From an uncultured Acidimicrobiales bacterium (GTDB lineage Bacteria; Actinomycetota; Acidimicrobiia; Acidimicrobiales; SHLQ01), in the NCBI GenBank assembly GCA_905479685.1, contig CAJQNJ010000166.1, forward strand, positions 1 to 45,552: 45,552 nucleotides of DNA. The letters run 5' to 3'. Each line of letters starts with the position of its first letter. Positions within the stretch are counted from its first letter, which is position 1. The notes beneath the pieces were generated by a model. It did no database searches and had not been told where the DNA came from. It worked only from the letters and a program-made list of their open reading frames with translations. This document shows, piece by piece, positions 1-16,426 of the stretch. The position numbers and the translations under genes are program-made.

Positions 1-703
1 GCTCGATCACGTCGATGAACCCGAGAGAAGACGCAATGTGTGATCTGTCATCGAGCAGTCGAGTGCCGTTGACGCAGCCTGCTCCACCAGGACTCAGGTT
101 CACTTCGCGCAGCGCTGCTGCCAATCGAGCTCCATCGCGTAGCGCTGGTGGGACGAACGAGAGCAGGTAGTGCCCGAATGTCGATGGTTGCGCCTGCTGC
201 AGGTAGGTCTGGTCTGGCATGAGCACATCTCGGTGCGCCGAAGCAACATCGGCTGCAGTGCGTGCGAAGCGACCAGCGTCACCAACAAGTGTTGCCGTCT
301 GCTTCCGAAGCACGATTCGTAAGGCCACTCGAGCTGCCTCGCGACGAGGGCGGCCAGCATGCAGCCAGCCAGCAACGGTGCCCAGACGTTCGGCAAACAG
401 ACGCTCTCGCGAGTTGTACGGCTCACCGAAATTCGGGTCGTATGGAAAGTCTTCGGCAGGTGTTGCATGAGCGATGAGCAGCTCGGCCAAGAGCTGTGCG
501 GCGATGTCCTCAGGAATGATGCTTCGACGGTGAAGATCGAGCACGTGCCCGAGATCGGCGACGTTCAACCCGTCGTGCAGCAACGGAGCGTCGGCGATCT
601 CCCAAGCGAATCCAGCATCGATCAGTTCTTGGGCGGGGCTATCACTCGATGGTCCTGCGACACGAGACGTCAACGGATCCTGGGAGTCGGATTGATTGGT
701 CAT
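1..703 (-). CDS. Argininosuccinate-lyase-like protein, aspartase/fumarase superfamily (3' end cut by window edge; XcbD1-like candidate)
   Basis: The first 234 codons of a leftward gene are visible; the rest lies outside. The ATG at 703 overlaps the TGA of the upstream PLP gene by 4 nt (ATGA), so it is translationally coupled. The protein follows the argininosuccinate lyase layout: YDPNFGEPYNSRER near residue 95, then AGRPRREAARVAL where true lyases have GRSRNDQ, then MPDQTYLQQAQPSTFGHYLL where they have MPGYTHLQ, then a SPGGAGCVNGTRL stretch matching the LGAGAGTG-type loop. The catalytic-region His of THLQ is Tyr and the Asn-Asp of SRND is gone, so ordinary argininosuccinate cleavage is unlikely. 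In Xanthobacter the second superfamily member of coenzyme M synthesis is XcbD1, and gene order here suggests the same role. Family assignment is good; the role is inferred. Confidence 0.75.
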   Translation of the reverse strand, partial: MTNQSDSQDPLTSRVAGPSSDSPAQELIDAGFAWEIADAPLLHDGLNVADLGHVLDLHRRSIIPEDIAAQLLAELLIAHATPAEDFPYDPNFGEPYNSRERLFAERLGTVAGWLHAGRPRREAARVALRIVLRKQTATLVGDAGRFARTAADVASAHRDVLMPDQTYLQQAQPSTFGHYLLSFVPPALRDGARLAAALREVNLSPGGAGCVNGTRLLDDRSHIASSLGFIDVIE

Positions 704-1722
704 AGGTCGCTGTCCTTCTGGTCGATCGGCAGAGGCGCCCGTCGGTAATCTGCTGATGAGACGTCTGGGAAGGCGCCAAGAGCACCTCCGGTCAGCCAGT
801 AGATGACAGGTCCTGTCAACCCGTTACCGTGCTGCGAGAGCCAATGAAGTGGTTTTGTGTTGTAGGTGTGGTCGATCAGTAGACCAGTGGCATCACGTAC
901 GCGTTGGCTGAACGCCACCTCCTCAGCGGTGACCATCCCGAAACCCTCACCGCGACAGTCGACGAGTCGAACGTTGTCCGCGCTCCCAGCATGGGATGCA
1001 GATCCCCCGAGCGCATTGACGGCGTCGCCTGCCTTCGCAACGATTTCGACGGCGGACCCCCTGGCTGGACGCGATACCGATGCGCCGATGATCGACCAAT
1101 CGGCGGTCAGAAGTGCCCGGCCCGCCAACAATCCCGAGATGCTGCCTCCCGACCCGACCGGAAGAACGATAGTCACGTGCTGAAGTCCGGCACTGTCCAT
1201 CTGGTCGGCGAGCTCGGTCGCCGCTGCGACAAATCCGTTGGAACCGACCAGAGTTGCGCCACCACGCGGAATCGCCACTGCCGTTCGGCCGTCTCGGCAC
1301 AACGTATCTGCGACGCTGACAGCCGTGGTCTCCATCGTGTCTCTATCGTCCGAGTTGGTGAAGACAAGCTGCGCCCCAGCCTGCACTGCGACGCGTAGCG
1401 CCGGAGGGTAGACGTCGGGCTCGGATCCGTATGCGACCTGATGTACGACGATGCCGACCTTGCGTCCGGCGGCGGCCATCGTGGCCGCGAAGTTCGAGCT
1501 TGGCCCACCAGATACGACGATGTCGGTGATCCCGCTCTCGAGAGCATCACCGATGAGAAATTCGGCGGTTCGGACTTTGTTTCCACCCCACGAGAAACCA
1601 GTCAGGTCATCTCGTTTCACCCACAGGTCATCGACGCCAAGCACGTCTGCGAGTGCGCTGTTCCGTCGAAGCGGGGTGGGAAAAACACCAAGTTCTGTCC
1701 GTGCGGGAAGGCTCAGCGCCAT
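700..1722 (-). CDS. D-cysteine desulfhydrase / ACC deaminase family PLP enzyme (XcbE1-like candidate)
   Basis: A 340-residue fold-type II PLP enzyme. N-terminal TPLRR and DLWVKRDDLTG are followed by SWGGNKVR, whose Lys is the expected Schiff-base lysine. A GGPSSNFAATMAAAGR segment replaces the QSNH region of D-cysteine desulfhydrases, and PVGSGGSISGLLAG is the phosphate-binding glycine loop. I choose the ATG at 1722, which overlaps the end of the upstream lyase gene by 10 nt; longer in-frame extensions lie inside that gene and look unrelated. The stop overlaps the next start by 4 nt. D-cysteine desulfhydrase homologues (XcbE1) belong to the bacterial coenzyme M set, and the neighbours here are the other members. 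The substrate is therefore probably a sulfonate intermediate rather than D-cysteine; that part is inference. Confidence 0.8.
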   Translation of the reverse strand: MALSLPARTELGVFPTPLRRNSALADVLGVDDLWVKRDDLTGFSWGGNKVRTAEFLIGDALESGITDIVVSGGPSSNFAATMAAAGRKVGIVVHQVAYGSEPDVYPPALRVAVQAGAQLVFTNSDDRDTMETTAVSVADTLCRDGRTAVAIPRGGATLVGSNGFVAAATELADQMDSAGLQHVTIVLPVGSGGSISGLLAGRALLTADWSIIGASVSRPARGSAVEIVAKAGDAVNALGGSASHAGSADNVRLVDCRGEGFGMVTAEEVAFSQRVRDATGLLIDHTYNTKPLHWLSQHGNGLTGPVIYWLTGGALGAFPDVSSADYRRAPLPIDQKDSDL

Positions 1723-3062
1723 GAAGCGGACTCGTTCGAACGACGAGCTTCGGCAGCCGTGACAATCGCGTCCGCCATCTCGACACAACTGCCTGTTTCC
1801 ACCGATGTGAGTTCCTGTAATTCGTCAGGCGTGGCAACGTGACTCAGGGCTTCTGCCAGTGGCTGCTCCGCGCTTCGGGCTACACGATACGCCTCGTGCA
1901 GAGCGGCCTGGGCTGCGTGTTTCCCGAGGCGGGTCGAGAGTCGTCGTAGTAGTTGCTCTGAGTGCACCGACCCGGCGGCGTGAATGTTTGCGAGCATTGC
2001 CTCCGACGAGACGCTGAGGCCGTCGACGAGTTGTCTACTGAGCGCTGTGGTGGCAGTGGCGTAGTGGCAAATCGTCGGAAGGGTCACCCACTCGGCCTTC
2101 CACCCACGCGCATCGCGTTCATGTTCTTGCACCATTGTCTCGGACAGTGACGACGAGTTGCTTCGTACGAGGCGAGCCAAGGTGACTACCTGCTCACTTC
2201 GCTCCGGATTCAGCTTGTGGGGCATCGTGATACTGCCGACGGTGGTCGCCGACGAGGCCTCGATCACCTCGCCGATTTCGGCTCGTTGCAGGGTGAACAC
2301 CTCGTTGGCCATGCGCGCAAGTGCAGCGGTGGCCAGCGTCAGAGTTCCGCCGAACTCGGCCAACCGATCGCGCGCCGTGAGCCACGAGATCCTGGGTTCC
2401 GACAGGTTGATCTCGGTGGCAAAGGCCTTCCGAAGTGGCAAGGCCTGTTCGCCGAAGAAGGCCAGCGATCCGACAGCGCCACCCAGCTGAGCCATGAGAC
2501 ACCGATTCTTCACTTCACCCATGCGCTCGAGGCTGCGACCGATCTCGTCGAGCCAGCTGGCCGTCTTGAAACCAAACGTGATCGGGGCCCCGGGTTGACC
2601 ATGGGTCCGGCCGACCATCGGTGTCGCGCGGTGAGTAATCGTGAGCTGGATCAGCGAGGCCTCGATTGCGCGAAGGTCCGTCCAGATGTATTGGCCGACC
2701 TGTGCCATCTCGAGTGCGGCAGCAGTATCTGTGACGTCCTGCACGGTGGCACCCACGTACACGTGCTCGCGCGCGGTTTCGGGCAGAAGCCGCTGGAGTT
2801 CGCGGATCAGGCCAAGCGTCGAGTGTGATGTCTCGCGTGTCCCTTCGGCGACGCGACGAATGTCGATGTCTTCGGCTCGAAGGTCGGAGATAGCTGCCGC
2901 TGATGCTCCGGGAATGATTCCCACGCTGGCCTGTGCTCTTGCCAGCGCGGCGATCACATCGAGCCACCTGCTGAGCCTGGCGCGTTCGGCGAAGAGCGAC
3001 CTGGAAAACTCGGTGGACCAGAGATCGCCGTAGATCGATGAGTCGATCAGATGGGCGTCCAC
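1713..3062 (-). CDS. Aspartase/fumarase superfamily lyase, adenylosuccinate-lyase/carboxymuconate-cycloisomerase type (XcbC1-like candidate)
   Basis: 449 residues with the complete superfamily signature GSITMPHKLNPERSE near residue 280, the MVGRTHGQPGAPITFG block that carries the catalytic-region His, and an early YVGATVQDVTDTA block. The GTG start at 3062 gives VDAHLIDSSIYGDLWS, a normal family N-terminus. It overlaps the upstream gene by 16 nt and follows a purine-rich GAGG/AGAGGG stretch. In X. autotrophicus Py2, XcbC1 of this superfamily eliminates phosphate from phosphosulfolactate to give sulfoacrylate. A phosphosulfolactate synthase two genes upstream makes that activity the best guess here. 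From sequence alone the protein could be annotated as adenylosuccinate lyase, but it sits in no purine context. Confidence 0.8.
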   Translation of the reverse strand: MDAHLIDSSIYGDLWSTEFSRSLFAERARLSRWLDVIAALARAQASVGIIPGASAAAISDLRAEDIDIRRVAEGTRETSHSTLGLIRELQRLLPETAREHVYVGATVQDVTDTAAALEMAQVGQYIWTDLRAIEASLIQLTITHRATPMVGRTHGQPGAPITFGFKTASWLDEIGRSLERMGEVKNRCLMAQLGGAVGSLAFFGEQALPLRKAFATEINLSEPRISWLTARDRLAEFGGTLTLATAALARMANEVFTLQRAEIGEVIEASSATTVGSITMPHKLNPERSEQVVTLARLVRSNSSSLSETMVQEHERDARGWKAEWVTLPTICHYATATTALSRQLVDGLSVSSEAMLANIHAAGSVHSEQLLRRLSTRLGKHAAQAALHEAYRVARSAEQPLAEALSHVATPDELQELTSVETGSCVEMADAIVTAAEARRSNESASWR

Positions 3063-3967
3063 GTGAAGCCCTCTGCCTCGATGACGGTCTGGATCGCTTC
3101 TCGAACTTCGTGCAGCGACGACCCCCATGGAACGAGCACCGCTCGGTTCTGTTGCTCCATCCCGTGCTGCAAGAGGCAACACCGGGTGATTAGCGGTCCA
3201 GCGTTTCTTCGTTCGGCTGTGATGAATTGCCGCGGGCACGTATCGATTCGAGGCGGGCGATCACCGTAGAACGCCTCGTGAATGTCGGCGGAGCGTTGGC
3301 AACCGAGCAACATCCAGTCCTGCCTCACTGGGCGCTGATCCAGGTAGGCCACGTCGGCATCAGGAAGTGCAACGCCTGCGGTTCTGCAGGGAAGTAGGAC
3401 TGAAGAGGAGTTCGCGGAAGTGCTCGAGCGCAACATGTCGAGGCTGCTGATCTCGTCGGGCACAAGCCCAATCGGCGGGAGGTCCTCGGCGAGGTCGAGA
3501 ATCCTTTGCGCCTGGTCGACGAGTTTGGAAGGTGCGGGAGGAACGATGTCGAGCACGTCGACCCAAAGGGGCTGGGGGTTCAGCAGGAAGCTGACGTGGG
3601 AGTACTTGCCCTCGACGACGAGGCACCGAGCATCAGAGTGATTGGCGCAGAGTTGGGCAAACTGCGAGGCAACACCCACATCGATGCGGTCATCTTCGAT
3701 CCAAACACACTCTGATGCCTCGGCAAGCACTCGAATGGCCGTGATCGGTGTGAACAGCTCGCCTGAGTCCTCCGTGCTGACCTCGGCCAACGCTGTCTCG
3801 CCTTCGACGCGGAGCACGAGAAACCGTGTTCGCATGTATGCATCTCGTCCCACGAAATGTCGTTCGAGTTCAGCCGGTTCGAGGCTCGGCGCGGCATGGC
3901 TGAGCGCAACCTGTCGATACTTTGCCGGAAAGATGTTCTGTGCCGTTGGGTCGAGATCGAATGTCAT
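3047..3967 (-). CDS. Uncharacterised cysteine-bearing protein inside the coenzyme M operon
   Basis: 306 residues that I do not recognise as a named enzyme. The start codon overlaps the comA stop by 4 nt (ATGA), and its own end overlaps the next lyase by 16 nt, so it is a firm operon member. The first half looks like an alpha/beta domain (FLVLRVEGETALAEV, CVWIEDDRID, CLVVEGKYSHVSFLLNP). The second half holds cysteines in short conserved-looking contexts: LLPCRTAG, LLGCQRSADIHEAFYGD, IDTCPRQFITAER and TRCCLLQHGM, followed by AVLVPWGSS. That spacing could serve a metal or Fe-S site, or redox thiols. No signal peptide or membrane segment is visible. By position it may perform a late decarboxylation, thiolation or reduction step of coenzyme M synthesis; this is a guess. 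Confidence 0.65.
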   Translation of the reverse strand: MTFDLDPTAQNIFPAKYRQVALSHAAPSLEPAELERHFVGRDAYMRTRFLVLRVEGETALAEVSTEDSGELFTPITAIRVLAEASECVWIEDDRIDVGVASQFAQLCANHSDARCLVVEGKYSHVSFLLNPQPLWVDVLDIVPPAPSKLVDQAQRILDLAEDLPPIGLVPDEISSLDMLRSSTSANSSSVLLPCRTAGVALPDADVAYLDQRPVRQDWMLLGCQRSADIHEAFYGDRPPRIDTCPRQFITAERRNAGPLITRCCLLQHGMEQQNRAVLVPWGSSLHEVREAIQTVIEAEGFTWTPI

Positions 3968-4770
3968 GCGTGCGCTGTGGCACAGGTCGAATCGGTGATC
4001 CCAATCGTGTCTGCGCGTAGCCCGAGACGCAACGACTCGACGCTCATGACCTCAGAAAGAACGATGTTTCCGACGCTCACATTAGGTCCGATGTGCCGCA
4101 TGAGCCAGGCTTGTTGACTACGACGCGGCGCCTCGTAGATGATCTTCCTCCGGTCAGGGAGTGCCTCGATCGCGGTCACGATGTCTTCGCGAACCCGCCC
4201 GTCGCCTTCATAGAGGCCGACGGTCCCAGATTCTCGGCCTTCAGCGACGACGAATGCCGCGCCGGCGTCGAGGTCGGCCTCAATCTCGTCTGTCCACTGA
4301 GAAGGTGATGCGTAGTTGGTGGGATCTTTGCTTCCCACCTCCGCCAGCACCTCGAAACCACGGCGAGACGCTTCGGTGATGAGAGAACGTTTGACATCCG
4401 AAGCCATGTCGGTCGCACCATTGCTGACCTCGAGTGTGCTGAATCCGACGGCCGCCGCCCAGTCGAAGAACTCTGCCGAGCGTTGTTGCTGCGACGCGAT
4501 CTCCAGAAGAGTTCCGCCTGTGCATGCACGTATGTTGTGGCTTCGGAGTTCGAGAATCTTGCCCGTCACCTCTGGATCGAGATAGGCAGTTCCCCAGCCG
4601 AACTTCCAAATGTCGATGAAGCCAGCGACGGAGAGCATGTATGAACGGAGTTGCTCGAGTGGCATACCCTTGTCGAGCACGTGCGTCAGACCTGAGGAGC
4701 GTGGTTTCGGCGCGCGAGCAGCAGTTGCCAAGAAGTTCGCCTGCTCGGGATTTTCCACCACGGGTTTCAT
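3964..4770 (-). CDS. comA: Phosphosulfolactate synthase, ComA/XcbB1 family
   Basis: A 268-residue TIM-barrel enzyme expected to add sulfite to phosphoenolpyruvate, giving (2R)-phosphosulfolactate, the first step of coenzyme M synthesis. Family motifs are plain: APKPRSSGLTHVLDKGMP near the N-terminus, DIWKFGWGTAYL, ACTGGTLLEIA, STLEVSNGATDM, VLAEVGSKDP, and ARESGTVGLY-like residues (EGRESGTVGLYEGDG). I place the start at the ATG at 4770, because the further in-frame Met at 4845 lies in the promoter gap. The leader begins about 36 nt upstream, after a TATAGT box. It heads the leftward operon and is followed with a 4-nt overlap by the cysteine-bearing unknown. ComA homologues also occur outside coenzyme M pathways (Bacillus sulfolactate), but the company of two fumarase-superfamily lyases and an XcbE1-like enzyme favours coenzyme M. 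Confidence 0.87.
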   Translation of the reverse strand: MKPVVENPEQANFLATAARAPKPRSSGLTHVLDKGMPLEQLRSYMLSVAGFIDIWKFGWGTAYLDPEVTGKILELRSHNIRACTGGTLLEIASQQQRSAEFFDWAAAVGFSTLEVSNGATDMASDVKRSLITEASRRGFEVLAEVGSKDPTNYASPSQWTDEIEADLDAGAAFVVAEGRESGTVGLYEGDGRVREDIVTAIEALPDRRKIIYEAPRRSQQAWLMRHIGPNVSVGNIVLSEVMSVESLRLGLRADTIGITDSTCATAHA

Positions 4771-4810
4771 TCCTGTGTTCTGAGTGGGTCTTCGACGGAA
4801 ATCGGTGAAA

Positions 4811-4842
4811 CTACTATAGGCGAAGGAGTATATCGTATCCGA
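4811..4842 (-). promoter_or_regulatory. Putative promoter/operator of the comA operon (TCGGATA-N17-TATAGTAG)
   Basis: On the minus strand TCGGATA (4842-4836) is separated by exactly 17 nt from TATAGTAG (4818-4811). TATAGT fits a bacterial -10 box, and TCGGATA sits where a -35 element belongs. The same two words at the same spacing occur upstream of the Sll0783-like gene at 10689-10658. The box lies about 40 nt before the comA start. Confidence 0.5.
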
Positions 4843-4876
4843 CACGTTCGGAAGGCAGTGAGGCGCAATCCAGACG

Positions 4877-5770
4877 TCAACTCCGAGACGGCTTCACCAC
4901 CTGTGGGAGACTGGCGCGACGTCCTTTCTCAGTCTGAATGGCTCCTGCTGCGAGGCCGATGCCGGCAAGTAGTGCCGGACCAGAACTGGCGCCAATATTT
5001 TCAATGATCGTGGCGGTTCGTTCGGCGGCGTCTTCGTGACCGATGCCGGCCTGACGTATGAGTCGATGGACCGGCTCGATGCTGTGCCCCCGCCCGGCCC
5101 AGTGCAAGAACCCCCGGCTGAGGTCGCTGGTTGCGGCGGACTGTGCATACATGGCGAGTCGTATGTCGTCTGGTCGCGCGAGCGCACGCAGGAAGAGGAC
5201 CCCTGCCAATACGTCATCGCCGACCGGAGTCAGGCCTGGCCCTCGACCCTCGAGCAGAAGGCGAAGTGACGTCAGATCTTCGTCACGTGATGCCCATTCG
5301 ACGGATCGCCAGTCGACGTCGAGATCTGGTGGTGGAAGAGGTCGGCAGATTCGTTCGAGCACCTCGAGCGAGGATTCGAGGCTCTCGGTGCCAGGGGGAA
5401 GGGGATCCCATCGGGTTGCCCGGCGTAGGTCGATCTCGACCTGCCGTGACCAAAGTCGATCGGGCGACATGGTGATCGGTGAATCAGTGCCGAGCAGAGG
5501 TGGGGGTCCGGCGTAGAGCAGGTGTAGTGGACCGGCATGAATGCGTTCTTGTCCAATCGCAAAGACCGTGGTCCCGAACTTCACGTAGTGGCCGTGACGG
5601 AAACTTGCGAGCACACGACCGTGCTGGTCGTTGCCAGTGCGCGCACGCTGCAGAACTGCGTAGGGTGCGGCTCCGATTGACCGCGCCGTCCGTTGTGGTG
5701 GCCGCCGACTCAGGACGTCGACCGATCGAGTTCGAGAAGTGCGTCGACGAAACACGTGATGGGTGCCCAT
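4877..5770 (-). CDS. ylbF: DUF2877 protein, YlbF/AllH-type subunit of an oxamate-carbamoyltransferase-like system
   Basis: 297 residues. The hallmark GRGPGLTPVGDDVLAGVLFLRAL sits near residue 175 (E. coli YlbF has a GKGPGLTPSHDD-type motif) and is followed by the usual late Gly/Ala-rich SSGPALLAGIGLAAGA segment. The ATG at 5770 overlaps the end of ylbE by 61 nt; a GTG at 5755 is an alternative, and the exact start is uncertain. In E. coli, FdrA, YlbE and YlbF encode an oxamate carbamoyltransferase used in allantoin-nitrogen metabolism with a carbamate kinase. All four partners occur in this locus, but fdrA and the kinase lie about 6 kb away in another unit. The substrate here is unknown. A 106-nt gap with its own promoter-like motif separates it from comA downstream. 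Confidence 0.82.
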   Translation of the reverse strand: MGTHHVFRRRTSRTRSVDVLSRRPPQRTARSIGAAPYAVLQRARTGNDQHGRVLASFRHGHYVKFGTTVFAIGQERIHAGPLHLLYAGPPPLLGTDSPITMSPDRLWSRQVEIDLRRATRWDPLPPGTESLESSLEVLERICRPLPPPDLDVDWRSVEWASRDEDLTSLRLLLEGRGPGLTPVGDDVLAGVLFLRALARPDDIRLAMYAQSAATSDLSRGFLHWAGRGHSIEPVHRLIRQAGIGHEDAAERTATIIENIGASSGPALLAGIGLAAGAIQTEKGRRASLPQVVKPSRS

Positions 5771-7143: not shown

Positions 7144-7181
7144 CTGCTCGTTCGCTCCATTTCTCTACCGACAAGGATTGT

Positions 7182-7189
7182 TTACTATA
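7182..7189 (-). promoter_or_regulatory. TATAGTAA motif in the divergent ylbE / AIR-synthase-like promoter
   Basis: The minus strand reads TATAGTAA about 40 nt before the ylbE start. The same bases read TTACTATA on the plus strand and give a TACTAT box at 7183-7188, only 12 nt before the ATG at 7201, so the rightward transcript may have almost no leader. No TCGGATA lies at the 17-nt spacing here. An AT-rich GTATCGTAT stretch overlaps the site, unusual in this GC-rich DNA. Confidence 0.4.
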
Positions 7190-7200
7190 CGATACGAGAT

Positions 7201-8184: not shown

Positions 8185-8706
8185 TAGTGGGCTGAGCGCT
8201 GGTACAGAAACCGGCAGATGAAGCTCTGGTTGTGCGGGAATCTGACTCTGAGCGGACTCCGATCCCGGGAGGTCGATGGCCATCGGCTGATGGGGGAGGC
8301 CATAGTGCGCGGCCACCGGACCATCTCGCTCCCAGCCAAGGCGCTCGAAGAAGCGGGTGTTGGGTACCTGCACGGTTGCGTGCATGATCTTTCCGCCAGC
8401 CGCCGCCGCAGTGGCGACTGCGTAACGCACCAGTCGGGCGCCAACGATCGATGTTCGATATGCGGGAAGCACAGCGAGGCGATCGCCCTTCCAGGTCCCA
8501 TGGTCGTCGAGTTCGTACAGTCGTACGGTTCCGGCCATGTGGTTGCCTGATGCGGCAAGGACATGGTGGGTTTGTGAGTGTCGGTCCCACGCGTCGACGT
8601 CGGTAAACACCATGACACGTTGTTCCTCGACGAACACCTGGTGTCGGATCGCGAAGTGACAAGAGAGATGTGTTTGGTCGGCTGTCCAACAGGCGACCTT
8701 GTGCAT
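8170..8706 (-). CDS. GNAT N-acetyltransferase, MSMEG_0567/Sll0786 (NitE) family
   Basis: 178 residues. The N-terminal CHFAIRHQVFVEEQRVM and TDVDAWD segments, AGTVRLYELDDHGTWKGDRLAVLPAYR, and NTRFFERLGWERDGPVAAHYGLPHQPMAIDL are the pattern of this nitrogen-starvation acetyltransferase family. The ATG at 8706 shares its first base with the TGA of the radical SAM gene (TGATG), so the two are coupled. Longer in-frame starts fall inside the radical SAM gene. It probably acylates a small-molecule amine made by its cluster partners; the substrate is unknown. The last 15 nt overlap the convergent AIR-synthase-like gene. Confidence 0.85.
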   Translation of the reverse strand: MHKVACWTADQTHLSCHFAIRHQVFVEEQRVMVFTDVDAWDRHSQTHHVLAASGNHMAGTVRLYELDDHGTWKGDRLAVLPAYRTSIVGARLVRYAVATAAAAGGKIMHATVQVPNTRFFERLGWERDGPVAAHYGLPHQPMAIDLPGSESAQSQIPAQPELHLPVSVPALSPLLTHV

Positions 8707-9878
8707 CAGGACGCCTCGGTCACCGGGATGAGCTTGCGTCCGGAGGCCTCGAGCTGCAGTGACTGTTCGATCGCCCCGAGGGGTGAGCATGCCTGACAAC
8801 GCGCACAGCCGGCCTGCACCTTGTCGGCGGTGAGGCCGCGTTCGATCAGATATGGCGCCACTTGACGCGCAATGCGGTCGGTGTACTCGGCACTTGGTGG
8901 CGTCACGTCGGACATCAGGCTGCCGGGAACCGGTCGAAGCGGCACGATGAACGGGTAGACGCCGATGTCCGCGGCACGTTTACATCCTTCGACGATCAGC
9001 TCGGGATCTTCGCCCATCCCGAGGATGACGTAGGTGGTCACCTGCCCCTCACCGAACCGTTTGACCGCGTACTCCCAGGCTTCGAAATACCGTTCGATCC
9101 CGGTCCGTGCTTTTGGAGGCGCGATGCGTGCCAAGACCGCAGGATCGAATGTCTCGACGTGGATGCCGAGTGAATTGATACCCATGTCGGCGACCTTGTC
9201 GATCACCGTGAGATCTTCTGGGGGCTCGAACTGCACCTCGACAGGCAGGCCTGATGCTTCGATCACGGCCTTGCCGCACTTTCCGACGTACAAGGCTCCG
9301 CGGTCCTTGCCGTACGTCGATCCTGTCGTGAGCGTGACATCGACGGCGCCGTCGAGCTCCTTGGCGGCCACCGCCACCTCAGCGAGGTGTTCGGGCCGTT
9401 TCACTTTCACGGTGTTGCCAGAATCAAGTGAGACCCCGATGCCGCAGAAATGACACTGGTCATCGTTGCCCCAATAGGCGCAGGTCTGCAGAACGGTGCT
9501 CGCGAGGCTGTCGAGATGCATCAAGGCGATTTGCCAGTACGGAGTTCCATCAGCGGTGGACATGTCGTAATAACGCGGCCGGTCCGCTGGTGCAGCCGAC
9601 GCAACTCGGGTGCCGTCGCGGTAGATGCCGAAGCCAGTGTCCTCGGCCTCCAGGCTGAACGGGGTGCCTGCAACGAACTCGGCGTCGACGGGCACGGTCA
9701 ACGGTTGGCCCTCGACCCAGATCATTCCGGCGTCCGATGGCCCAGCTCCTCCTGGACGACGTTCGAATTCGGTGTTGATCCGAACACCACTCGATTGCAG
9801 CTCCACGATCAGTCGCGAGAGCCGCTCACCGTCTTCCGCAGTTTGAATTGCGCTGCGGACCTGGTCGGTGGTTGACAC
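8706..9878 (-). CDS. Radical SAM protein, MSMEG_0568 (NitD) family
   Basis: 390 residues starting at a GTG at 9878 with a strong GGAGGA six nt upstream. The 4Fe-4S motif is C-x8-C-x2-C (CAYWGNDDQCHFC, Cys133, 142, 145), longer than the canonical C-x3-C-x2-C. It is followed by TLTTGSTYGKDRGAL, VQFEPPED and GIHVETFD, as in radical SAM barrels. A second cysteine group, GCARCQACSP near the C-terminus, could hold an auxiliary cluster. The family is a core member of Nit1C-type loci; its reaction is unknown. It lies 95 nt after the Sll0783-like gene and is coupled to the downstream GNAT gene. The preceding gap holds a variant of the locus motif at 9953-9960. Confidence 0.88.
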   Translation of the reverse strand: MSTTDQVRSAIQTAEDGERLSRLIVELQSSGVRINTEFERRPGGAGPSDAGMIWVEGQPLTVPVDAEFVAGTPFSLEAEDTGFGIYRDGTRVASAAPADRPRYYDMSTADGTPYWQIALMHLDSLASTVLQTCAYWGNDDQCHFCGIGVSLDSGNTVKVKRPEHLAEVAVAAKELDGAVDVTLTTGSTYGKDRGALYVGKCGKAVIEASGLPVEVQFEPPEDLTVIDKVADMGINSLGIHVETFDPAVLARIAPPKARTGIERYFEAWEYAVKRFGEGQVTTYVILGMGEDPELIVEGCKRAADIGVYPFIVPLRPVPGSLMSDVTPPSAEYTDRIARQVAPYLIERGLTADKVQAGCARCQACSPLGAIEQSLQLEASGRKLIPVTEAS

Positions 9879-9952
9879 GTGTGTTCCTCCTCGGCGCTCA
9901 CGAACAACGTGAACCTCGATTGTCCTTCCTAACAGAACGTAGCCGTAGGCGT

Positions 9953-9960
9953 CTACTAAA
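9953..9960 (-). promoter_or_regulatory. TTTAGTAG, a variant of the locus promoter/operator motif, before the radical SAM gene
   Basis: The minus strand reads CCTTTAGTAGACGCC. It shares TAGTAGACG with the site before the Sll0783-like gene and differs at one base in the -10-like hexamer. It lies about 77 nt upstream of the radical SAM start. It is flanked by GGCGT and ACGCC, which could pair into a small stem. It is the weakest of the four sites. Confidence 0.3.
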
Positions 9961-9973
9961 GGAAACGCCCTCG

Positions 9974-10615
9974 TCAGGTCATGGCGTCGATTTGTTCGAT
10001 CAAAGCTGCCCGTGCTTCCAAGAAGACGTCGGCTTCGGCGTGCTCCTGCGTGTCGGCGATGCCGGGGTCGATGTCGACCGGTTCTCCAGTGTCGGAGTTC
10101 ATCCGGATGACCGTCAGTACATGGTTCGCTCGGCCATCGACGGGATTGGGTTCTACCGAAGAAACAATCGCCGCGCCGGTCGCGAGGTGTAGCTGGATCG
10201 CCGAATATGGATCCATGAGTCCGTGGATGAGAGTTCCCTGCTCGTGCAACAGTGCCCACGAGTCACCGTCACTTCGGGCCGCATCGATCGTTGAGACCAG
10301 CTGCAGCTGATGAGCTGCTGCACGGAGTTCGGCATCGCGTAACGCAAACCCCACACCAGCGACGCTTTCTGGTGGGAGGTCGCCTACTGGTACTCCGATT
10401 CGAGCAGCCGCGTCGGCGACGAGTGTCTCGCCGTTGGCCCATTGTTTCGCGAGTGCCGCTTCTGACGTCACGGCTGCGAGTCCATCAGCCACCTCTCGGG
10501 CAAGCCGAATGACTTGCTGATATTTCTCGGGACTCACCGTTGCGAGCGGATAGAGCTTGCGTTCTGCTTCGGTCCAGATGGGGCGGAGCGTCGCAATCTC
10601 AGATGTCGTGTTCAT
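9974..10615 (-). CDS. MSMEG_0572/Sll0783 (NitB) family nitrogen-starvation response protein
   Basis: 213 residues with no known catalytic motif. The ATVSPEKYQQVIRLAREVADGL start, WANGETLVADAAARIGVPVGDL, LLHEQGTLIHGLMDPYSAIQLHLATGAAI, and the ending with ANHVLTVIRMNSDTGEPVDIDPGIAD resemble the Sll0783 family found in every Nit1C-type cluster. I choose the ATG at 10615, preceded by GAGAG. It is divergent from carbamate kinase with 89 nt between starts and leads the radical SAM/GNAT genes. A TCGGATA-N17-TATAGTAG promoter-like element stands about 43 nt before the start. It is probably a cytoplasmic enzyme or scaffold of the cluster; the function is not established. Confidence 0.85.
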   Translation of the reverse strand: MNTTSEIATLRPIWTEAERKLYPLATVSPEKYQQVIRLAREVADGLAAVTSEAALAKQWANGETLVADAAARIGVPVGDLPPESVAGVGFALRDAELRAAAHQLQLVSTIDAARSDGDSWALLHEQGTLIHGLMDPYSAIQLHLATGAAIVSSVEPNPVDGRANHVLTVIRMNSDTGEPVDIDPGIADTQEHAEADVFLEARAALIEQIDAMT

Positions 10616-10657
10616 GGGGCTCTCTCGCTCTTCTTGCCAGGACGGCATATTGTCCGT

Positions 10658-10689
10658 CTACTATAGGACACATACCATTGCCTATCCGA
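10658..10689 (-). promoter_or_regulatory. Putative promoter/operator of the Sll0783-like gene (TCGGATA-N17-TATAGTAG), also facing carbamate kinase
   Basis: The minus strand has TCGGATA at 10689-10683, a 17-nt spacer and TATAGTAG at 10665-10658, identical in words and spacing to the element before comA. The same bases give TACTAT (10659-10664) on the plus strand, about 40 nt before the carbamate kinase start. The site may serve both directions or bind a regulator between the two genes. Confidence 0.5.
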
Positions 10690-10704
10690 TCGGAAATTTC
10701 ATTG

Positions 10705-11709
10705 GTGCCGAAGACTGCAGTCCTTGCGCTTGGAGGAAACGCACTCATCCGTGAGGACGAGCGCGGCACCATCGATGAGCAGTACGACAATGCGCTGGCC
10801 ATGTCGAAGTCAGTCCGGTCGCTCATTCGGAAAGGATGGCGCATCATCATCGTGCATGGCAACGGCCCACAGGTCGGCAACCTTGCGATCCAGCACGCCG
10901 AGAGCATCGATCTCGTGCCTGCGCAACCGTTGTTCGCCCTCGGGGCCATGACGCAAGGTGCGGTGGGAAGCTTGATCTGCTTGGCTCTCCACGAAGTGTG
11001 CGGCGCCGAAATCATGGGTGCCGTATCGGTGATCACGCATATGGAGGTCGATGCCGACGATCCGGCGTTCGATCACCCGACGAAACCGATCGGCCCGTTC
11101 TTCGACGAGGAAGCAGCCAAGACCCTGACCGTCGAACGCGGCTGGACGATGATCGAGGATTCGGGCCGAGGGTTCAGACGAGTCGTACCTTCGCCGGGAC
11201 CCCTTGCCCCGATCGAGGCCGAGGCAATCGAAATGCTCATCGAGTCCGGTTTCGTTGTCGTGGCGGCCGGGGGAGGGGGCATACCTGTCATACGCGATGG
11301 CGACTCGATGCGTGGCGTGGACGCGGTCATCGACAAGGACTTTGCTGCGGAACGTATTGCAGATTCCTCTGGCGCCCAGGTGCTCGTGATGGTCACGGGA
11401 GTGTCGAATGTGAAGATCAATTTCGGCACCCCCGAAGAGGAAACGATCTTCAATCTCACCCCGGAAGAAGCCAAGAAACACATGGCCGACGGTCAGTTTC
11501 CCGCCGGGAGCATGGGGCCCAAGATCAGCGCGGCCGTGCACTTCGTCGAGGGAGCGCGAGTCGGCGTCGAGCGGTTTGCCGCAATCACGACGCCGGAACT
11601 CGTGTATGCCACCGTCGACAACGCACACGGCGCGATACAAGGGCACCGCGGTACCAAGATCAAGCCGCCCAAACCGACATCGTCAGAGAGTGCAGCGATC
11701 AATGCATGA
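10705..11709 (+). CDS. arcC: Carbamate kinase
   Basis: 334 residues of the amino-acid-kinase fold. Hallmarks are LALGGNALI, IIVHGNGPQVGN, FALGAMTQGAVG, FVVVAAGGGGIPV, and DAVIDKDFAAERIA near residue 215, with a C-terminal GSMGPKISAAVHFV. The enzyme moves phosphate between carbamoyl phosphate and ADP to yield ATP and carbamate. I use the GTG at 10705; the TTG at 10702 is possible. It overlaps fdrA by 8 nt. No arcA or argF is present, so the partner is the FdrA/YlbE/YlbF carbamoyltransferase-like system, as in the E. coli allantoin cluster. It stands where one might expect a nitrilase in a Nit1C locus. Confidence 0.93.
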   Translation: MPKTAVLALGGNALIREDERGTIDEQYDNALAMSKSVRSLIRKGWRIIIVHGNGPQVGNLAIQHAESIDLVPAQPLFALGAMTQGAVGSLICLALHEVCGAEIMGAVSVITHMEVDADDPAFDHPTKPIGPFFDEEAAKTLTVERGWTMIEDSGRGFRRVVPSPGPLAPIEAEAIEMLIESGFVVVAAGGGGIPVIRDGDSMRGVDAVIDKDFAAERIADSSGAQVLVMVTGVSNVKINFGTPEEETIFNLTPEEAKKHMADGQFPAGSMGPKISAAVHFVEGARVGVERFAAITTPELVYATVDNAHGAIQGHRGTKIKPPKPTSSESAAINA

Positions 11710-13231
11710 AGTTCAGGTCCTGCGAGACAACTACAAGGACAGCGTCAGACTTCTCGAAGCGACTCGTTCGATGCTCGCAGTTGCAGGCATCGAGTACGCC
11801 TGGGCGCTCATGGGAACGCCGGCCAACCTCGAGACGTTGGCTGGTGAGGGATTCGAGAATCTCGACGAGACTTCGGCGAACGATCTTGTTCTTGCGGTCC
11901 GGTCAGGTGACCCAGAGTCACGGGTCGCTGCGCTCGAACTTGCAAACGACATTCTCTTTGCAGCTGTCCGGTCATCGGGTGGTGACGATGCAGCGCCCCA
12001 AGCCACAGACCTTGCCGGTGCGATGGCGCAGCAAGAAGGATCCAATGTTGCGATCATCTCTGTGCCTGGACAGTACGCATCGCTCGAGGCGCAAAAGGCA
12101 CTCTCGGCGGGGCTCGACGTCTTGTTGTTCAGCGACAACGTGCCCCTCAGCGACGAGATCGCGCTCAAAGAGCGAGCTCGTGACCTCGGCCGCTTGGTCA
12201 TGGGCCCAGGCGCCGGAACGGCGATGATCGCTGGCACCGGACTGGGATTCGCCAATCGGGTGAAGCCTGGGCGAGTTGGGATCGTTGCCGCCGCAGGTAC
12301 GGGAGCACAGGAGGCCATGGCGCTTCTCGACCGGTGGGGCGTCGGCGTTTCTCATGTGATTGGTGTCGGCGGTCGCGACCTCAGCACCGAAGTCGGCGGG
12401 TTGATGGCGCGAGCGGGAATCGGCGCTCTCGAAGCCGATCCGGGGACCGACGCAATCTTGTTGGTCTCCAAGCCGCCGTCGCCAGAGGTCGCCGAATCGC
12501 TGCTTGGGCAGGCACCCTCCAAACCAATGGTCGCAGCCCTCATCGGACTCCGCGAGGACCTCGATGGGGTCCATGACGACATCAAGGTGTGCAACACGCT
12601 CGAGCAAGGAGTGGTCTTGTCGTTGGAGCGGATGGGCGTCGAAATTCCCGATCGAATTGGCGACACGCCTGAGGCGGTCGCCGAGTTGATCACGGCCATC
12701 CCACAGTCTCGCACTCGACTCGTTGGACTCTTCAGCGGCGGCACTCTCTGCTACGAAGCGATGACGATCGCCACGGAGCACATCGGGCCAATTCACTCGA
12801 ACACACCACTCGAGAAGTCTTGGACCGTGCCGGCGCCCGACGGAGCCCACGTCTGTCTCGACCTCGGCGAAGAGGAACACACGCAGGGACTTCCACACCC
12901 GATGATTGACCCCGAAGCGCGGATCGAATGGATGCGGAAGCAAATAGCTGACCCCAGTGTCGCCGTCGTCTTGCTCGACGTTGTTCTCGGTGATGGTTCC
13001 CACGAAGACCCAGCGAGCCTGCTGGCGCCCATCGCTGCGGAGATCATTGCTTCGGGTGCGACCGTCGTTGCGTACGTTCTCGGGACGGAGCTCGATCCTC
13101 AGGGGTTCGAGTACCAACGCAAGACACTCCGCGATGCGGGCTGCATCGTCTCGGAGACTGCGGCTCGGGCGGCGCTCGCAGCTGCGGCGATCGTAAATCG
13201 AGACCCGGCTCTTGTGCACAGTGACTTCTGA
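11702..13231 (+). CDS. fdrA: FdrA/AllF-type subunit of an oxamate-carbamoyltransferase-like system (succinyl-CoA-synthetase fold)
   Basis: 509 residues. The N-terminal LRDNYKDSVRLLEATR and WALMGTPAN match FdrA, followed by an ATP-citrate/succinyl-CoA-ligase-like core: FSDNVPLSDEIALKERAR, LVMGPGAGTAMIAGTGLGFAN, VIGVGGRDLSTEVGG, VGLFSGGTLCYEA, and LPHPMIDPEAR followed by VVLLDVVLGDGSHEDPA. The E. coli protein is longer by about 45 residues at the C-terminus, where it carries an NIGL...WSPVAGG module that is found at the N-terminus of YlbE in this locus. The ATG at 11702 overlaps arcC by 8 nt. The end overlaps the glycosyltransferase if that starts at 13221. It is expected to work with YlbE and YlbF encoded 4.5 kb away. 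Confidence 0.9.
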   Translation: MHEVQVLRDNYKDSVRLLEATRSMLAVAGIEYAWALMGTPANLETLAGEGFENLDETSANDLVLAVRSGDPESRVAALELANDILFAAVRSSGGDDAAPQATDLAGAMAQQEGSNVAIISVPGQYASLEAQKALSAGLDVLLFSDNVPLSDEIALKERARDLGRLVMGPGAGTAMIAGTGLGFANRVKPGRVGIVAAAGTGAQEAMALLDRWGVGVSHVIGVGGRDLSTEVGGLMARAGIGALEADPGTDAILLVSKPPSPEVAESLLGQAPSKPMVAALIGLREDLDGVHDDIKVCNTLEQGVVLSLERMGVEIPDRIGDTPEAVAELITAIPQSRTRLVGLFSGGTLCYEAMTIATEHIGPIHSNTPLEKSWTVPAPDGAHVCLDLGEEEHTQGLPHPMIDPEARIEWMRKQIADPSVAVVLLDVVLGDGSHEDPASLLAPIAAEIIASGATVVAYVLGTELDPQGFEYQRKTLRDAGCIVSETAARAALAAAAIVNRDPALVHSDF

Positions 13232-14438
13232 GAATGTCGGCCGCGTGGCCACTGAGCGGCGCTCGGGGTCAGGGCCGCGAATTGCCCTGACAACGTATTC
13301 GGTCAAGCCACGTGGTGGCGTCGTACACACCCTCGAATTGGCCGAGGCCCTTGCCGATCTCGGCGCCGACGTGACGGTGATCGCAATGGGAGATCCCGAT
13401 GTCGGGTTCTTTCGCGAGGTGGGCGTGCCCACACACATCGTGCAAGCTCCGTCGGGAGGTAGAACGCTTGATGAACGAGTCCCGCTGTGGATCGCGGCCA
13501 TGGCAGAGGGACTCGAGTCGATGCGCGACGACTTCGACATCGTGCACAGTCAGGACTGCATCTCGGCGCGCGCTGCCGCTCGCGTTCGAGATGGCCAGAT
13601 CCGCCGTGGAGAGACGGCGTTCGAGTTGATCCGGACGGTGCACCACGTAGACGACTTCACGACACAGTCACTGATGGATTGCCAAAAAAGGGCGATCCTC
13701 GAACCGGATCGTGTGTTGGTCGTCAGCCAGATCTGGAGGCGACTCCTTCAAGCCGACTACGGGGTCGATGCCGAAGTCGTTGCGAACGGCGTCCGTGCAG
13801 ATCGTTTTGCTCGCCCGATCTCGGCGGAACGGCGCGCCGAACTCCGGTCCCGCGTGGGTGCGACTGACCGATTCCTGTTTCTCACGATCGGCGGAATCGA
13901 ACCCCGAAAGGGATCGACGTTCTTGGTAGATGCGCTCGGTCGTCACAACGCTGCTGGCCATGACGCTGTCCTTGCGGTCATTGGTGGCCACTCGTTCCAG
14001 GACTACCGCCCGTATCGGGAGAGCGTTTTCGACTCACTCGCGACCCACGGCGTGCGTCTCGACGAGGACCTCTATCTTCTCGGCACGGTCGATGACGATG
14101 AGCTTCCCGACTGGTTCCAAGCTGCCGACGCCTTCGTCTTCCCATCGTTGAAGGAGGGGTGGGGGCTCGTGGTCCTCGAAGCAATGGGCGCGGGCCTTCC
14201 CGTGCTCACGTCAGATATCGAGGTCTTTCATGAGTTTCTCGAACACGGCGTCAGCGCACTGATGACAGCGGTTGGCGATGCGGCGTCCATTGCCGATGGC
14301 ATGGCCTTGCTCCAGAACGATCGGGACCTGGTGAGAAGACTGGCGTCGAATGGTGTGTTGGTCGCCACGCAATATTCGTGGGAAGCGTCGGCACGCCAAC
14401 ACCTCGAGATGTATCAGGCGGGTGTCAGAGCCGTCTGA
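13221..14438 (+). CDS. Glycosyltransferase family 4, MSMEG_0565-type
   Basis: 405 residues from a GTG at 13221; a GTG at 13245 is an equally possible start, and no clear ribosome site decides. The GT4 features are RIALTTYSVKPRGGVVHTLELAEAL at the N-terminus (the TYSxKPRGGVVH run is typical of MSMEG_0565 proteins), DIVHSQDCISA, GGIEPRKGSTFLVDAL, LGTVDDDELPDWFQAADAFVFPSLKEGWGLVVLEAMGAG with the EX7E motif, and a final TQYSWEASARQHLEMY. It overlaps the end of fdrA and closes the rightward unit. Its presence suggests that the product of the locus, or an intermediate, is glycosylated. Its tail overlaps the convergent cbtA by 25 nt. Confidence 0.87.
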   Translation: MTSENVGRVATERRSGSGPRIALTTYSVKPRGGVVHTLELAEALADLGADVTVIAMGDPDVGFFREVGVPTHIVQAPSGGRTLDERVPLWIAAMAEGLESMRDDFDIVHSQDCISARAAARVRDGQIRRGETAFELIRTVHHVDDFTTQSLMDCQKRAILEPDRVLVVSQIWRRLLQADYGVDAEVVANGVRADRFARPISAERRAELRSRVGATDRFLFLTIGGIEPRKGSTFLVDALGRHNAAGHDAVLAVIGGHSFQDYRPYRESVFDSLATHGVRLDEDLYLLGTVDDDELPDWFQAADAFVFPSLKEGWGLVVLEAMGAGLPVLTSDIEVFHEFLEHGVSALMTAVGDAASIADGMALLQNDRDLVRRLASNGVLVATQYSWEASARQHLEMYQAGVRAV

Positions 14439-15145: not shown

Positions 15146-15176
15146 GTAGTCGAGGTGATCTGCAGGAATTGGACTG

Positions 15177-15386: not shown

Positions 15387-15471
15387 TCCTTTAGTGTTTC
15401 ATACGTGTCGCATAGTTGACAAACAAAAGCGGCTGAATCGGCGTGCCGATACGCGATCGCCCGGACTGAAG

Positions 15472-16392: not shown

Positions 16393-16426
16393 TGATCGTG
16401 GAGGACGCTCGGCATGGGGCGCGGTT

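What the first reader, a model, noticed from the sequence alone, without database searches (positions are those of the whole stretch)
1..14438. One locus joins coenzyme M synthesis, an oxamate-type carbamoyltransferase and a nitrilase-less Nit1C set
Fourteen genes in tight, mostly overlapping units combine three modules not known to me to occur together. They are XcbB1/C1/D1/E1-like coenzyme M enzymes, FdrA-YlbE-YlbF-carbamate kinase, and the Nit1C-type AIR-synthase-like, GNAT, radical SAM, Sll0783-like and glycosyltransferase proteins. The gene families are seen in the sequence and their separate pathways are established. That they form one pathway, for example a coenzyme M-dependent route that releases or uses a carbamoyl group, is inference.
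Basis: partly seen in the sequence, partly recalled or inferred. Interest (0 to 1): 0.9.

Follow-up and report, generated by a model that had tools for sequence, protein, structure and literature searches.

The report
Coenzyme M–nitrile–carbamoyl gene cluster
A gene island that recurs in several bacterial groups combines genes for making the rare cofactor coenzyme M, for breaking down nitriles and for moving carbamoyl groups; it probably forms one unrecognised nitrogen pathway and suggests a new use for coenzyme M.

Summary
The window is one whole MAG contig. It carries ComA, XcbA, XcbC (cut at the edge), XcbD and XcbE; AllF, AllG, AllH and carbamate kinase; and AIR-synthase-like, GNAT, radical SAM and glycosyltransferase proteins. 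The "Sll0783-like" gene is another family (Orf213). "Nitrilase-less" is partly an edge effect: contig C175 of the same genome begins with the rest of XcbC, then holds a complete cobalt-type nitrile hydratase (NHase), OsmC, a disulfide-reductase-like enzyme and the true MSMEG_0572/Sll0783 protein. A CbtA cobalt-transporter gene adjoins the cluster.

The combination recurs. In 34 of 80 XcbA loci all three modules lie within 21 kb. Of 50 XcbA genomes, 40 carry the matching AllG and 36 the matching radical SAM. None of 53 such loci has the epoxide-type CoM transferase. NHase, Nit6803 nitrilase and an amidohydrolase largely replace one another. Three genomes have All and Nit1C-like genes but no XcbA.

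So one functional unit is well supported. My best mechanism (nitrile/cyanide nitrogen assimilation with CoM as thiol carrier and AllFGH recovering the carbamoyl group) is unproven. I found no description of the combination in what the literature searches listed.

The parts
2..703 (-). XcbC-like lyase, 3' part cut by the contig edge; continues on contig C175:1-813
   Evidence: NCBIfam XcbC 189.6 bits over 214 residues; L029 XcbC residues 1-220 match window 661-2 and residues 224-493 match C175:1-810
700..1722 (-). XcbE-like PLP enzyme (start by match to L029)
   Evidence: PALP 6.9e-26; NCBIfam XcbE 198.8 bits, under cut-off 450
1713..3062 (-). XcbD-like lyase
   Evidence: NCBIfam XcbD 520.8 bits, cut-off 600; start
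3047..3967 (-). XcbA family protein (DUF7714)
   Evidence: PF24830 277.8 bits; NCBIfam XcbA 315.4 bits, cut-off 150
3964..4845 (-). ComA, phosphosulfolactate synthase (XcbB role)
   Evidence: PF02679 255.5 bits; TIGR03849 242.5, cut-off 280
4877..5770 (-). AllH-like (DUF2877) carbamoyltransferase subunit
   Evidence: PF11392 59.5 bits, cut-off 25
5710..7143 (-). AllG-like (DUF1116) carbamoyltransferase subunit
   Evidence: PF06545 226.8 bits, cut-off 27; solved relative 3clq, E 9.4e-76
7201..8184 (+). AIR-synthase-like protein (Sll0787/NitF-like)
   Evidence: AIRS and AIRS_C; TIGR04049 230 bits, under cut-off 321; solved relatives ThiL and HypE 2z1e
8170..8799 (-). GNAT acetyltransferase (MSMEG_0567/NitE-like)
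   Evidence: TIGR04045 95.5 bits, cut-off 68.5
8706..9880 (-). MSMEG_0568-family radical SAM protein (NitD-like); start not certain (set by the length of relatives)
   Evidence: TIGR04043 363.9 bits, cut-off 303.7
9974..10615 (-). Orf213, family of unknown function (not Sll0783)
   Evidence: no NCBIfam hit; homologues in 33 of 53 type-ii loci
10705..11709 (+). carbamate kinase (AllK/ArcC-like)
   Evidence: TIGR00746 336 bits, cut-off 358; PRK12352 296 bits, cut-off 266
11702..13231 (+). AllF/FdrA-like carbamoyltransferase subunit
   Evidence: Ligase_CoA 108 bits; FdrA model 391 bits, cut-off 433
13212..14438 (+). MSMEG_0565-family glycosyltransferase
   Evidence: TIGR04047 373.7 bits, cut-off 259.9
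14414..15145 (-). CbtA, probable cobalt transporter subunit, convergent with the glycosyltransferase gene
   Evidence: PF09490 173.4 bits, cut-off 30.7; same family beside the cluster in nine other loci

Best explanation
This is one conserved functional unit: a nitrogen-assimilation pathway for a nitrile- or cyanide-type substrate, in which coenzyme M or a near relative made by ComA/XcbA-E acts as a thiol carrier. Proposed steps: (1) cyanide or a cyano group is captured on the CoM thiol or disulfide, giving an organic thiocyanate such as CoM-SCN, perhaps helped by the OsmC-like and MSMEG_0572 cysteine proteins [inferred]. (2) The cobalt NHase beside XcbC hydrates it to an S-carbamoyl (carboxamide) form [enzyme family and metal motif shown; substrate inferred]; other lineages use a Nit6803 nitrilase or an amidohydrolase at this point [near-exclusive distribution shown; shared step inferred]. 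(3) AllFGH moves the carbamoyl group to phosphate and frees the carrier [transcarbamylase family shown; substrate inferred]. (4) Carbamate kinase turns carbamoyl phosphate into ATP, NH3 and CO2 [established for the family]. (5) The CoA-disulfide-reductase-like flavoenzyme recycles CoM disulfide [inferred]. The AIR-synthase, GNAT, radical SAM and glycosyltransferase proteins do here what they do in Nit1C, itself unknown. I put the claim 'one functional unit' at about 0.85; the confidence below is for this mechanism.
For: Recurrence: 34 of 80 XcbA loci hold XcbA, an All subunit and AIRS or rSAM within 20.9 kb. In 50 XcbA genomes AllG (>=56% id) is in 40 and rSAM (>=60%) in 36, 35 shared, p=7e-6. 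Ascertained by rSAM in 396 phylum genomes: XcbA in 9 of the 10 with rSAM >=60%, 0 of 3 at 53-55%, 0 of 15 at 39-48%. Nitrile step: among 40 AllG-positive genomes NHase and amidohydrolase avoid each other ([[3,25],[8,4]], p=7e-4), and 3 of the 4 with neither carry a Nit6803-type nitrilase; no type-ii locus of the 53 holds two of the three enzymes. NHase alpha keeps VCTLCSC in at least 85% of 14 sequences, also in C175, whose beta, alpha and accessory genes are intact; a CbtA cobalt-transporter gene adjoins the window's cluster. None of the called genes of L029 is an amidase (I ran no amidase search). EaCoMT is absent from all 53 type-ii loci, so CoM is probably not used for epoxides there. AmiS/UreI-like channel in 13 of 53. 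Four nitrilase-type organisms, where ammonia would be released directly, show no carbamate kinase in the fetched stretches. Nit1C is linked to cyanide assimilation (PMC11049912, passages); AllFGH catalyses oxalurate + Pi <-> oxamate + carbamoyl phosphate (PMC11326118, abstract and passages).
Against: AllF/AllG persist in nitrilase and amidohydrolase variants, where step 2 would not obviously give a carbamoyl compound. AllFGH is known on an amide nitrogen, not on a thiol. XcbE is missing from 11 type-ii loci that have XcbC and XcbD, so CoM may not be the final product there. G418, G645 and G477 have All and Nit1C-like genes with no XcbA found. The amidohydrolase also sits in Nit1C-like loci without XcbA (G110, G225, G541), so it is not tied to CoM. 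Paraburkholderia elongata has a nitrilase and an NHase-beta-like match in one stretch, against strict exclusion. AIRS, GNAT, rSAM, glycosyltransferase and Orf213 have no role in steps 1-5. The NHase scores as nitrile hydratase, not thiocyanate hydrolase.
Confidence: 0.36

Rival explanations
1. The unit is biosynthetic. It builds an unknown small metabolite or cofactor from a CoM (ethanesulfonate) block. Carbamate kinase and AllFGH install a carbamoyl group, the AIR-synthase activates an amide, and radical SAM, GNAT and glycosyltransferase tailor it; NHase, nitrilase or amidohydrolase is a late tailoring step.
For: The set of AIR-synthase, radical SAM, GNAT and glycosyltransferase looks like small-molecule assembly. 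Alphaproteobacterial loci add a LnmK-like acyltransferase/decarboxylase (Pnap_2097). In G477 an aminotransferase, a luciferase-type (SsuD-like) monooxygenase and a LysA-like decarboxylase sit between carbamate kinase and AllF, and G645 has the same three families beside carbamate kinase plus a TauE/SafE exporter-family protein between GNAT and AIRS, as if one building block replaced another.
Against: No assembly-line enzyme was seen among the genes listed for L029, L036, L078 and the Methylocystis iwaonis plasmid. AmiS/UreI channel and cobalt uptake suit uptake and catabolism. NCBIfam names tie several members to nitrogen starvation (names only).
Confidence: 0.3
2. A nitrogen-scavenging island: CoM, carbamoyl and nitrile modules run separate reactions and are co-inherited because the same regulation suits them.
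For: Modules are separable: dispersed over megabases in P. dioxanivorans CB1190, on two contigs in Sphingobium, and All/Nit1C parts occur without XcbA in three genomes. Genomes whose rSAM is of the canonical kind lack XcbA in 15 of 15 of the phylum sample.
Against: CoM synthesis is not in itself a nitrogen-scavenging function, and no EaCoMT is present in 53 of 53 type-ii loci. Genes of the modules interleave, for example AllH-ComA-XcbA-XcbD-XcbC-NHase (L036).
Confidence: 0.2
3. The Xcb-like enzymes make something other than CoM, for example a different sulfonate or thioether, used by the All/Nit1C part.
For: XcbE is absent from 11 type-ii loci that have XcbC and XcbD; window XcbE scores 199 against a cut-off of 450 and XcbD 521 against 600.
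Against: 38 of 53 type-ii loci keep XcbE, and XcbA is shared with the Xanthobacter Py2 plasmid (35% identity), the organism whose pathway was determined (PMC12068725, passages).
Confidence: 0.1

Closest known systems
Nit1C cluster (NitBCDEFGH; MSMEG_0565-0572 / Sll0783-0787 families)
   Same: MSMEG_0568 radical SAM, GNAT, AIR-synthase-like, MSMEG_0572 (on C175) and MSMEG_0565 glycosyltransferase are present; the Nitrobacter relative carries full-score radical SAM, AIR synthase and Nit6803 nitrilase.
   Different: No NitC nitrilase in the window's locus but an NHase; AIR-synthase under the equivalog cut-off; CoM and All genes interleaved. NitG and NitH were not tested for.
Bacterial coenzyme M biosynthesis locus (Xanthobacter autotrophicus Py2 xcb genes)
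   Same: ComA, XcbA, XcbC, XcbD and XcbE homologues in one run.
   Different: The Py2 locus carries 2-oxopropyl-CoM reductase and SDRs, and EaCoMT is in 14 of 20 epoxide-type loci; type-ii loci have no EaCoMT and sit with nitrile and carbamoyl genes.
AllFGHK oxamic transcarbamylase and carbamate kinase of Escherichia coli
   Same: All four genes are present.
   Different: No allantoin or ureidoglycolate gene among the called genes of L029 (not searched further); partners are CoM and Nit1C-like genes; substrate unknown.
Cobalt-type nitrile hydratase operon
   Same: Alpha, beta and accessory genes over the NCBIfam cut-offs, VCTLCSC motif, CbtA cobalt transporter at the other end of the cluster.
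   Different: No amidase among the called genes of L029; AllFGH-carbamate kinase may stand where an amidase would be expected (inference).

Membership tests
Nit1C cluster | Nit6803/NitC nitrilase in the cluster | tested here: not met
   None among the window or C175 cluster genes; the genome's two CN_hydrolase genes are on other contigs, C6 and C121; draft genome, 85% complete
Nit1C cluster | MSMEG_0568 radical SAM and MSMEG_0567 GNAT at curated score | tested here: met
   363.9 (cut-off 303.7) and 95.5 (cut-off 68.5)
Nit1C cluster | Sll0787-type AIR synthase at curated score | tested here: not met
   230.1 against cut-off 321.3
Nit1C cluster | MSMEG_0572/Sll0783 protein | tested here: met
   On C175, 209.6 bits, cut-off 109.9; not in the window
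Nit1C cluster | NitG and NitH proteins | not tested
   no probe for them was used
Nit1C cluster | function in cyanide assimilation | not testable with these tools
   needs mutants and growth tests
Bacterial CoM biosynthesis | ComA plus XcbA, C, D, E homologues together | tested here: met
   XcbD, XcbE and ComA below the NCBI cut-offs, XcbC cut by the contig edge
Bacterial CoM biosynthesis | production of CoM | not testable with these tools
   needs metabolomics
Epoxide-type CoM locus | epoxyalkane:CoM transferase beside the xcb genes | tested here: not met
   0 of 53 type-ii loci have it, 14 of the other 27 do; none in window bases 1-20000 or C175:1-12000 by the same probes
AllFGHK transcarbamylase | AllF, AllG, AllH and carbamate kinase genes | tested here: met
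AllFGHK transcarbamylase | oxalurate/oxamate as substrate | not testable with these tools
   needs enzyme assay
Cobalt nitrile hydratase | alpha and beta subunits at curated score and CTLCSC site | tested here: met
   alpha 296.4/249.9, beta 204.7/152.2, accessory 72.5/46 on C175; motif in C175 and relatives. That CTLCSC marks the cobalt type is recalled
Thiocyanate hydrolase | gamma-subunit model at curated score | tested here: not met
   184.2 against cut-off 291.5

The most novel reading that the evidence does not exclude
A so far undescribed, widespread metabolic pathway uses coenzyme M outside methanogenesis and epoxide metabolism: as the thiol that carries a cyano/carbamoyl group, so that cyanide or nitrile nitrogen is recovered as carbamoyl phosphate (ATP plus ammonia) through NHase and AllFGH-carbamate kinase, with Nit1C supplying the rest.
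Probability: 0.3. Interest if true: 0.92.

Novelty: new variant of a known kind. Interest (0 to 1): 0.78.

Why it matters
CoM is described as a cofactor of alkane/methane metabolism in archaea and of alkene metabolism in bacteria (PMC12068725, passages). A distinct, recurrent class of CoM loci tied to nitrile and carbamoyl genes would add a further use and give the Nit1C genes, most of unknown chemistry, a set of partners to test. Named strains carry it (Nocardioides soli, Kribbella sp. VKM Ac-2568, Methylocystis iwaonis, Ruegeria sp. THAF57, P. dioxanivorans CB1190), so the question is directly testable.

Tried and rejected
Rejected: (a) 'Sll0783-like' for 9974-10648. (b) A HypE-like forward reaction, in which the AIR-synthase dehydrates S-carbamoyl-CoM to S-cyano-CoM: my first idea (note; the HypE reaction itself is recalled). 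HypE is a solved relative but ThiL ranks higher, and an NHase in the same locus would undo it. (c) Thiocyanate hydrolase for the NHase. (d) My first split of the 80 loci into 34 combined, 40 plain and 6 other was wrong: many 'plain' Pseudonocardia loci carry GNAT, MSMEG_0572, Orf213, OsmC and the XRE-cupin gene and were cut by the 10-kb flank. (e) CbtB for the 69-aa ORF at 15177-15386: looks alike by eye, no Pfam match; the L078 neighbour is itself just under the cut-off.

Limits: the 80 loci were found by XcbA and are the best 80 of 123; the 50 genomes were chosen by me from those 80, dropping near-duplicates and short contigs. The identity cut-offs (AllG 56%, rSAM 60%, NHase 65%) were set after seeing the lists. 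With any NHase match counted, G312 (59%) and G339 (53%) also count as NHase-positive. One of the amidohydrolase matches in an NHase-positive genome (G332) has an in-frame stop. Fisher tests ignore relatedness and were not corrected for number of tests. The rSAM tree is a quick one and most XcbA-positive rows were ascertained by XcbA.
Full report
What is there. The window is a whole contig (C166) of a 3.2-Mb, 246-contig MAG, 85% complete. Fourteen genes at 2-14438 form four units: a minus-strand run XcbC-XcbE-XcbD-XcbA-ComA-AllH-AllG; a plus-strand AIR-synthase-like gene; a minus-strand run GNAT-radical SAM-Orf213; and a plus-strand run carbamate kinase-AllF-glycosyltransferase. Two corrections matter. 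Gene 9974-10615 is not Sll0783: it has no NCBIfam match, and I call it Orf213. Gene 3047-3967 is XcbA/DUF7714. A CbtA gene (probable cobalt transporter) follows convergently at 14414-15145; the 69-aa ORF beyond it resembles CbtB only by eye.

Beyond the edge. XcbC stops at base 2. In the same genome contig C175 begins inside XcbC: residues 1-220 of the L029 homologue match the window and residues 224-493 match C175:1-810, with no exact end overlap. C175 then carries an XRE-cupin regulator, NHase beta, alpha and accessory genes, OsmC, a CoA-disulfide-reductase-like flavoenzyme (CoADR), a short ORF, and the true MSMEG_0572/Sll0783 protein. NHase alpha is 296 bits (cut-off 250) for nitrile hydratase and 184 (cut-off 291) for thiocyanate hydrolase. 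It is the only PF02979 match in this draft genome; the family rang in 0 of 14 control genomes. The contig join is inferred from the split gene and the nearest relative's gene order, not from overlapping reads. A cobalt transporter and an NHase with the VCTLCSC site fit together as metal supply and user.

Recurrence. A class sample of 296 genomes gave XcbA in 13. One of them, G195, in another family, has the whole combination in a different order, with an amidohydrolase instead of the NHase. A scan of the genome collection with an XcbA alignment gave 123 relatives, of which the best 80 were kept. Annotated with 152 representative proteins, 34 of 80 hold XcbA, at least one All subunit and AIRS or rSAM within 20.9 kb. 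By record title these come from Acidimicrobiia, other Actinomycetota (Nocardioides, Kribbella, Pseudonocardia, Planosporangium), Alphaproteobacteria (Methylocystis, Nitrobacter), a Deltaproteobacteria-labelled MAG, and MAGs labelled Dormibacterota and Bacillota. Ruegeria carries the parts within about 40 kb of one contig, Sphingobium on two contigs. In an Anaerolineales MAG AllG, AllF and the Nit1C-like part form one cluster and the CoM genes lie on another contig. Methylocystis iwaonis carries the set on a plasmid, annotated family by family.

Two kinds of CoM locus. Fifty-three of the 80 loci have two or more of the All, Nit1C-like and associated genes ('type ii'); 14 have an epoxyalkane:CoM transferase-like gene (EaCoMT); no locus has both (0 of 53 against 14 of 27, p=1.3e-8). 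OsmC (41 of 53 against 1 of 20 epoxide-type loci), XRE-cupin (34 against 0), Orf213 (33 against 0), MSMEG_0572 (31 against 0) and NHase alpha (17 against 0) mark type ii. Much of this second contrast is by construction: type ii is defined by such genes, and six of the 20 epoxide-type loci were admitted for an SDR gene and the lack of them. EaCoMT was not part of the type-ii definition. Seven loci fit neither kind.

Genome-wide linkage. In 50 of the 80 genomes searched whole, AllG at >=56% identity occurs in 40 and rSAM at >=60% in 36 (35 shared, p=7e-6). Five AllG-positive genomes lack that rSAM: four alphaproteobacterial ones have a 39-42% rSAM, and one (G317) has none found. The test in the other direction starts from rSAM in 396 phylum genomes: 28 have it at E<=1e-50, and XcbA is found in 9 of the 10 with >=60% identity, 0 of 3 at 53-55% and 0 of 15 at 39-48%; with two class genomes added (G221, >=60%, no XcbA; G225, 45%, none), 9 of 11 against 0 of 19, p=3.8e-6. 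In the class sample the combined-clade AllG is in 5 genomes and the combined-clade rSAM in 4 of those 5; XcbA is in 4 of the 5, while the other 9 XcbA genomes have neither. In the rSAM tree one 41-row clade (SH-aLRT 100) holds the window and all actinobacterial type-ii rows included; its only two negatives (G221, G440) are incomplete MAGs whose nearest rows have XcbA. The four alphaproteobacterial rows group elsewhere, beside canonical Nit1C rows, so the association with CoM probably arose more than once (ascertainment biased).

Exchangeable nitrile step. Among the 40 AllG-positive genomes, 25 have the NHase (>=65%) only, 8 the amidohydrolase only, 3 both and 4 neither (p=7e-4). Of the 4, three (Methylocystis, Nitrobacter, Sphingobium) have a nitrilase in the locus (the Nitrobacter one scores 556 bits as Nit6803 type, cut-off 503) and one is G312, whose matches are scattered over small contigs. 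Within the 34 triple loci: 17 NHase, 2 nitrilase, 7 amidohydrolase, 8 none seen within the stretch, and no type-ii locus has two. Against strict exclusion, a Paraburkholderia elongata stretch has a nitrilase and an NHase-beta-like match. The amidohydrolase also occurs in Nit1C-like loci of genomes without XcbA (G110, G225, G541). Four nitrilase-type organisms show no carbamate kinase in the fetched stretches.

A natural contrast. Three genomes of one family (G418, G645, G477) carry carbamate kinase, AllG, AIRS, GNAT, rSAM, amidohydrolase, Orf213 and MSMEG_0572 but no XcbA genome-wide, and no CoADR or XRE-cupin match in the 20-kb stretch. Beside carbamate kinase all three have an aminotransferase; G477 and G645 add a luciferase-type monooxygenase (SsuD-like in G477, 258 bits, cut-off 518) and a LysA-like decarboxylase; G645 also has an OsmC-family protein, missed by my probes, and a TauE/SafE-family protein. 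So the CoM block is a detachable part that another small-molecule block may replace (inference).

How it may work. AllFGH of E. coli exchanges carbamoyl between oxalurate and phosphate (PMC11326118, abstract and passages). Nit1C is linked to cyanide assimilation, with NitC hydrolysing a 2-hydroxynitrile (PMC11049912, passages). An NHase product that can feed a transcarbamylase needs its carbonyl on S, N or O; a thiol made in the same operon, CoM, offers one. Hence the proposal cyanide -> CoM-SCN -> S-carbamoyl-CoM -> carbamoyl phosphate -> ATP + NH3 + CO2. Only the enzyme families, their intact state and their linkage are shown; substrates are inferred. An invariant cysteine in MSMEG_0572 (ACRF, 17 sequences), two conserved in OsmC, and N- and C-terminal cysteine triplets in the radical SAM protein (>=85% of rows) fit sulfur chemistry but do not prove it. 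Two type-ii records carry the name SCNpilot (L033, L053); PMC5458468 (passages) uses that name for genomes of a thiocyanate bioreactor study. The biosynthetic reading remains a serious rival.

Literature. Searches for Nit1C with coenzyme M (none), coenzyme M with nitrile hydratase and carbamate kinase (none), and two of coenzyme M, nitrile hydratase, nit1C, allFGH, fdrA, oxalurate (31 papers, 25 listed) showed no title or abstract start that describes the combination; nor did the listings (15 of 3,846 listed; 15 of 34 listed). Only open-licence PMC papers are held, so this is not proof of absence. PMC12625717 (passages) reports allFGHK in nitrifiers, next to triuret/biuret genes.

Noticed in passing
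L240 (G418), L241 (G645), L242 (G477): Variant cluster with All and Nit1C-like genes but no XcbA in the genome; an aminotransferase in all three, and a luciferase-type monooxygenase and LysA-like decarboxylase in two, lie beside carbamate kinase; L241 also has OsmC- and TauE-family proteins.
   Followed up: partly
window 9974-10615: Orf213: no NCBIfam or Pfam model matched, confident predicted structure (pLDDT 94.1), no clear fold match.
   Followed up: yes
L110 5559-6035 (C175): MSMEG_0572/Sll0783 relative; the L029 homologue has a weak DsrE match just under the Pfam cut-off, and an ACRF cysteine is invariant in 17 aligned relatives, suggesting a sulfur-carrier role.
   Followed up: partly
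L030, L036-L039, L042, L044, L051, L061, L076, L078: XcbC and XcbD present but no XcbE found in the locus; nine of these are Acidimicrobiia/Acidimicrobiaceae MAGs with the same gene order as far as seen.
   Followed up: no
L252 (Methylocystis iwaonis plasmid NZ_AP027143.1): The combination, with nitrilase and without a recognised carbamate kinase, is carried on a plasmid; a second M. iwaonis plasmid also has the XcbA.
   Followed up: partly
L066, L185-L187 (Pseudonocardia dioxanivorans CB1190): Parts dispersed over megabases in one chromosome; AIRS not seen in the stretches fetched.
   Followed up: partly
L029 19583-19855 and 14851-15231: Two short conserved families of unknown function: about 88 aa, in 30 of 53 type-ii loci and 0 of 20 epoxide-type; about 115 aa, in 21 of 53 and 1 of 20.
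   Followed up: no
L046, L058: Record titles look doubtful: L046 is titled Bifidobacterium breve but has the gene order of the UBA actinobacterial loci, and L058 is titled Acidobacteria while the same contig appears in G195, placed in the window's class.
   Followed up: no
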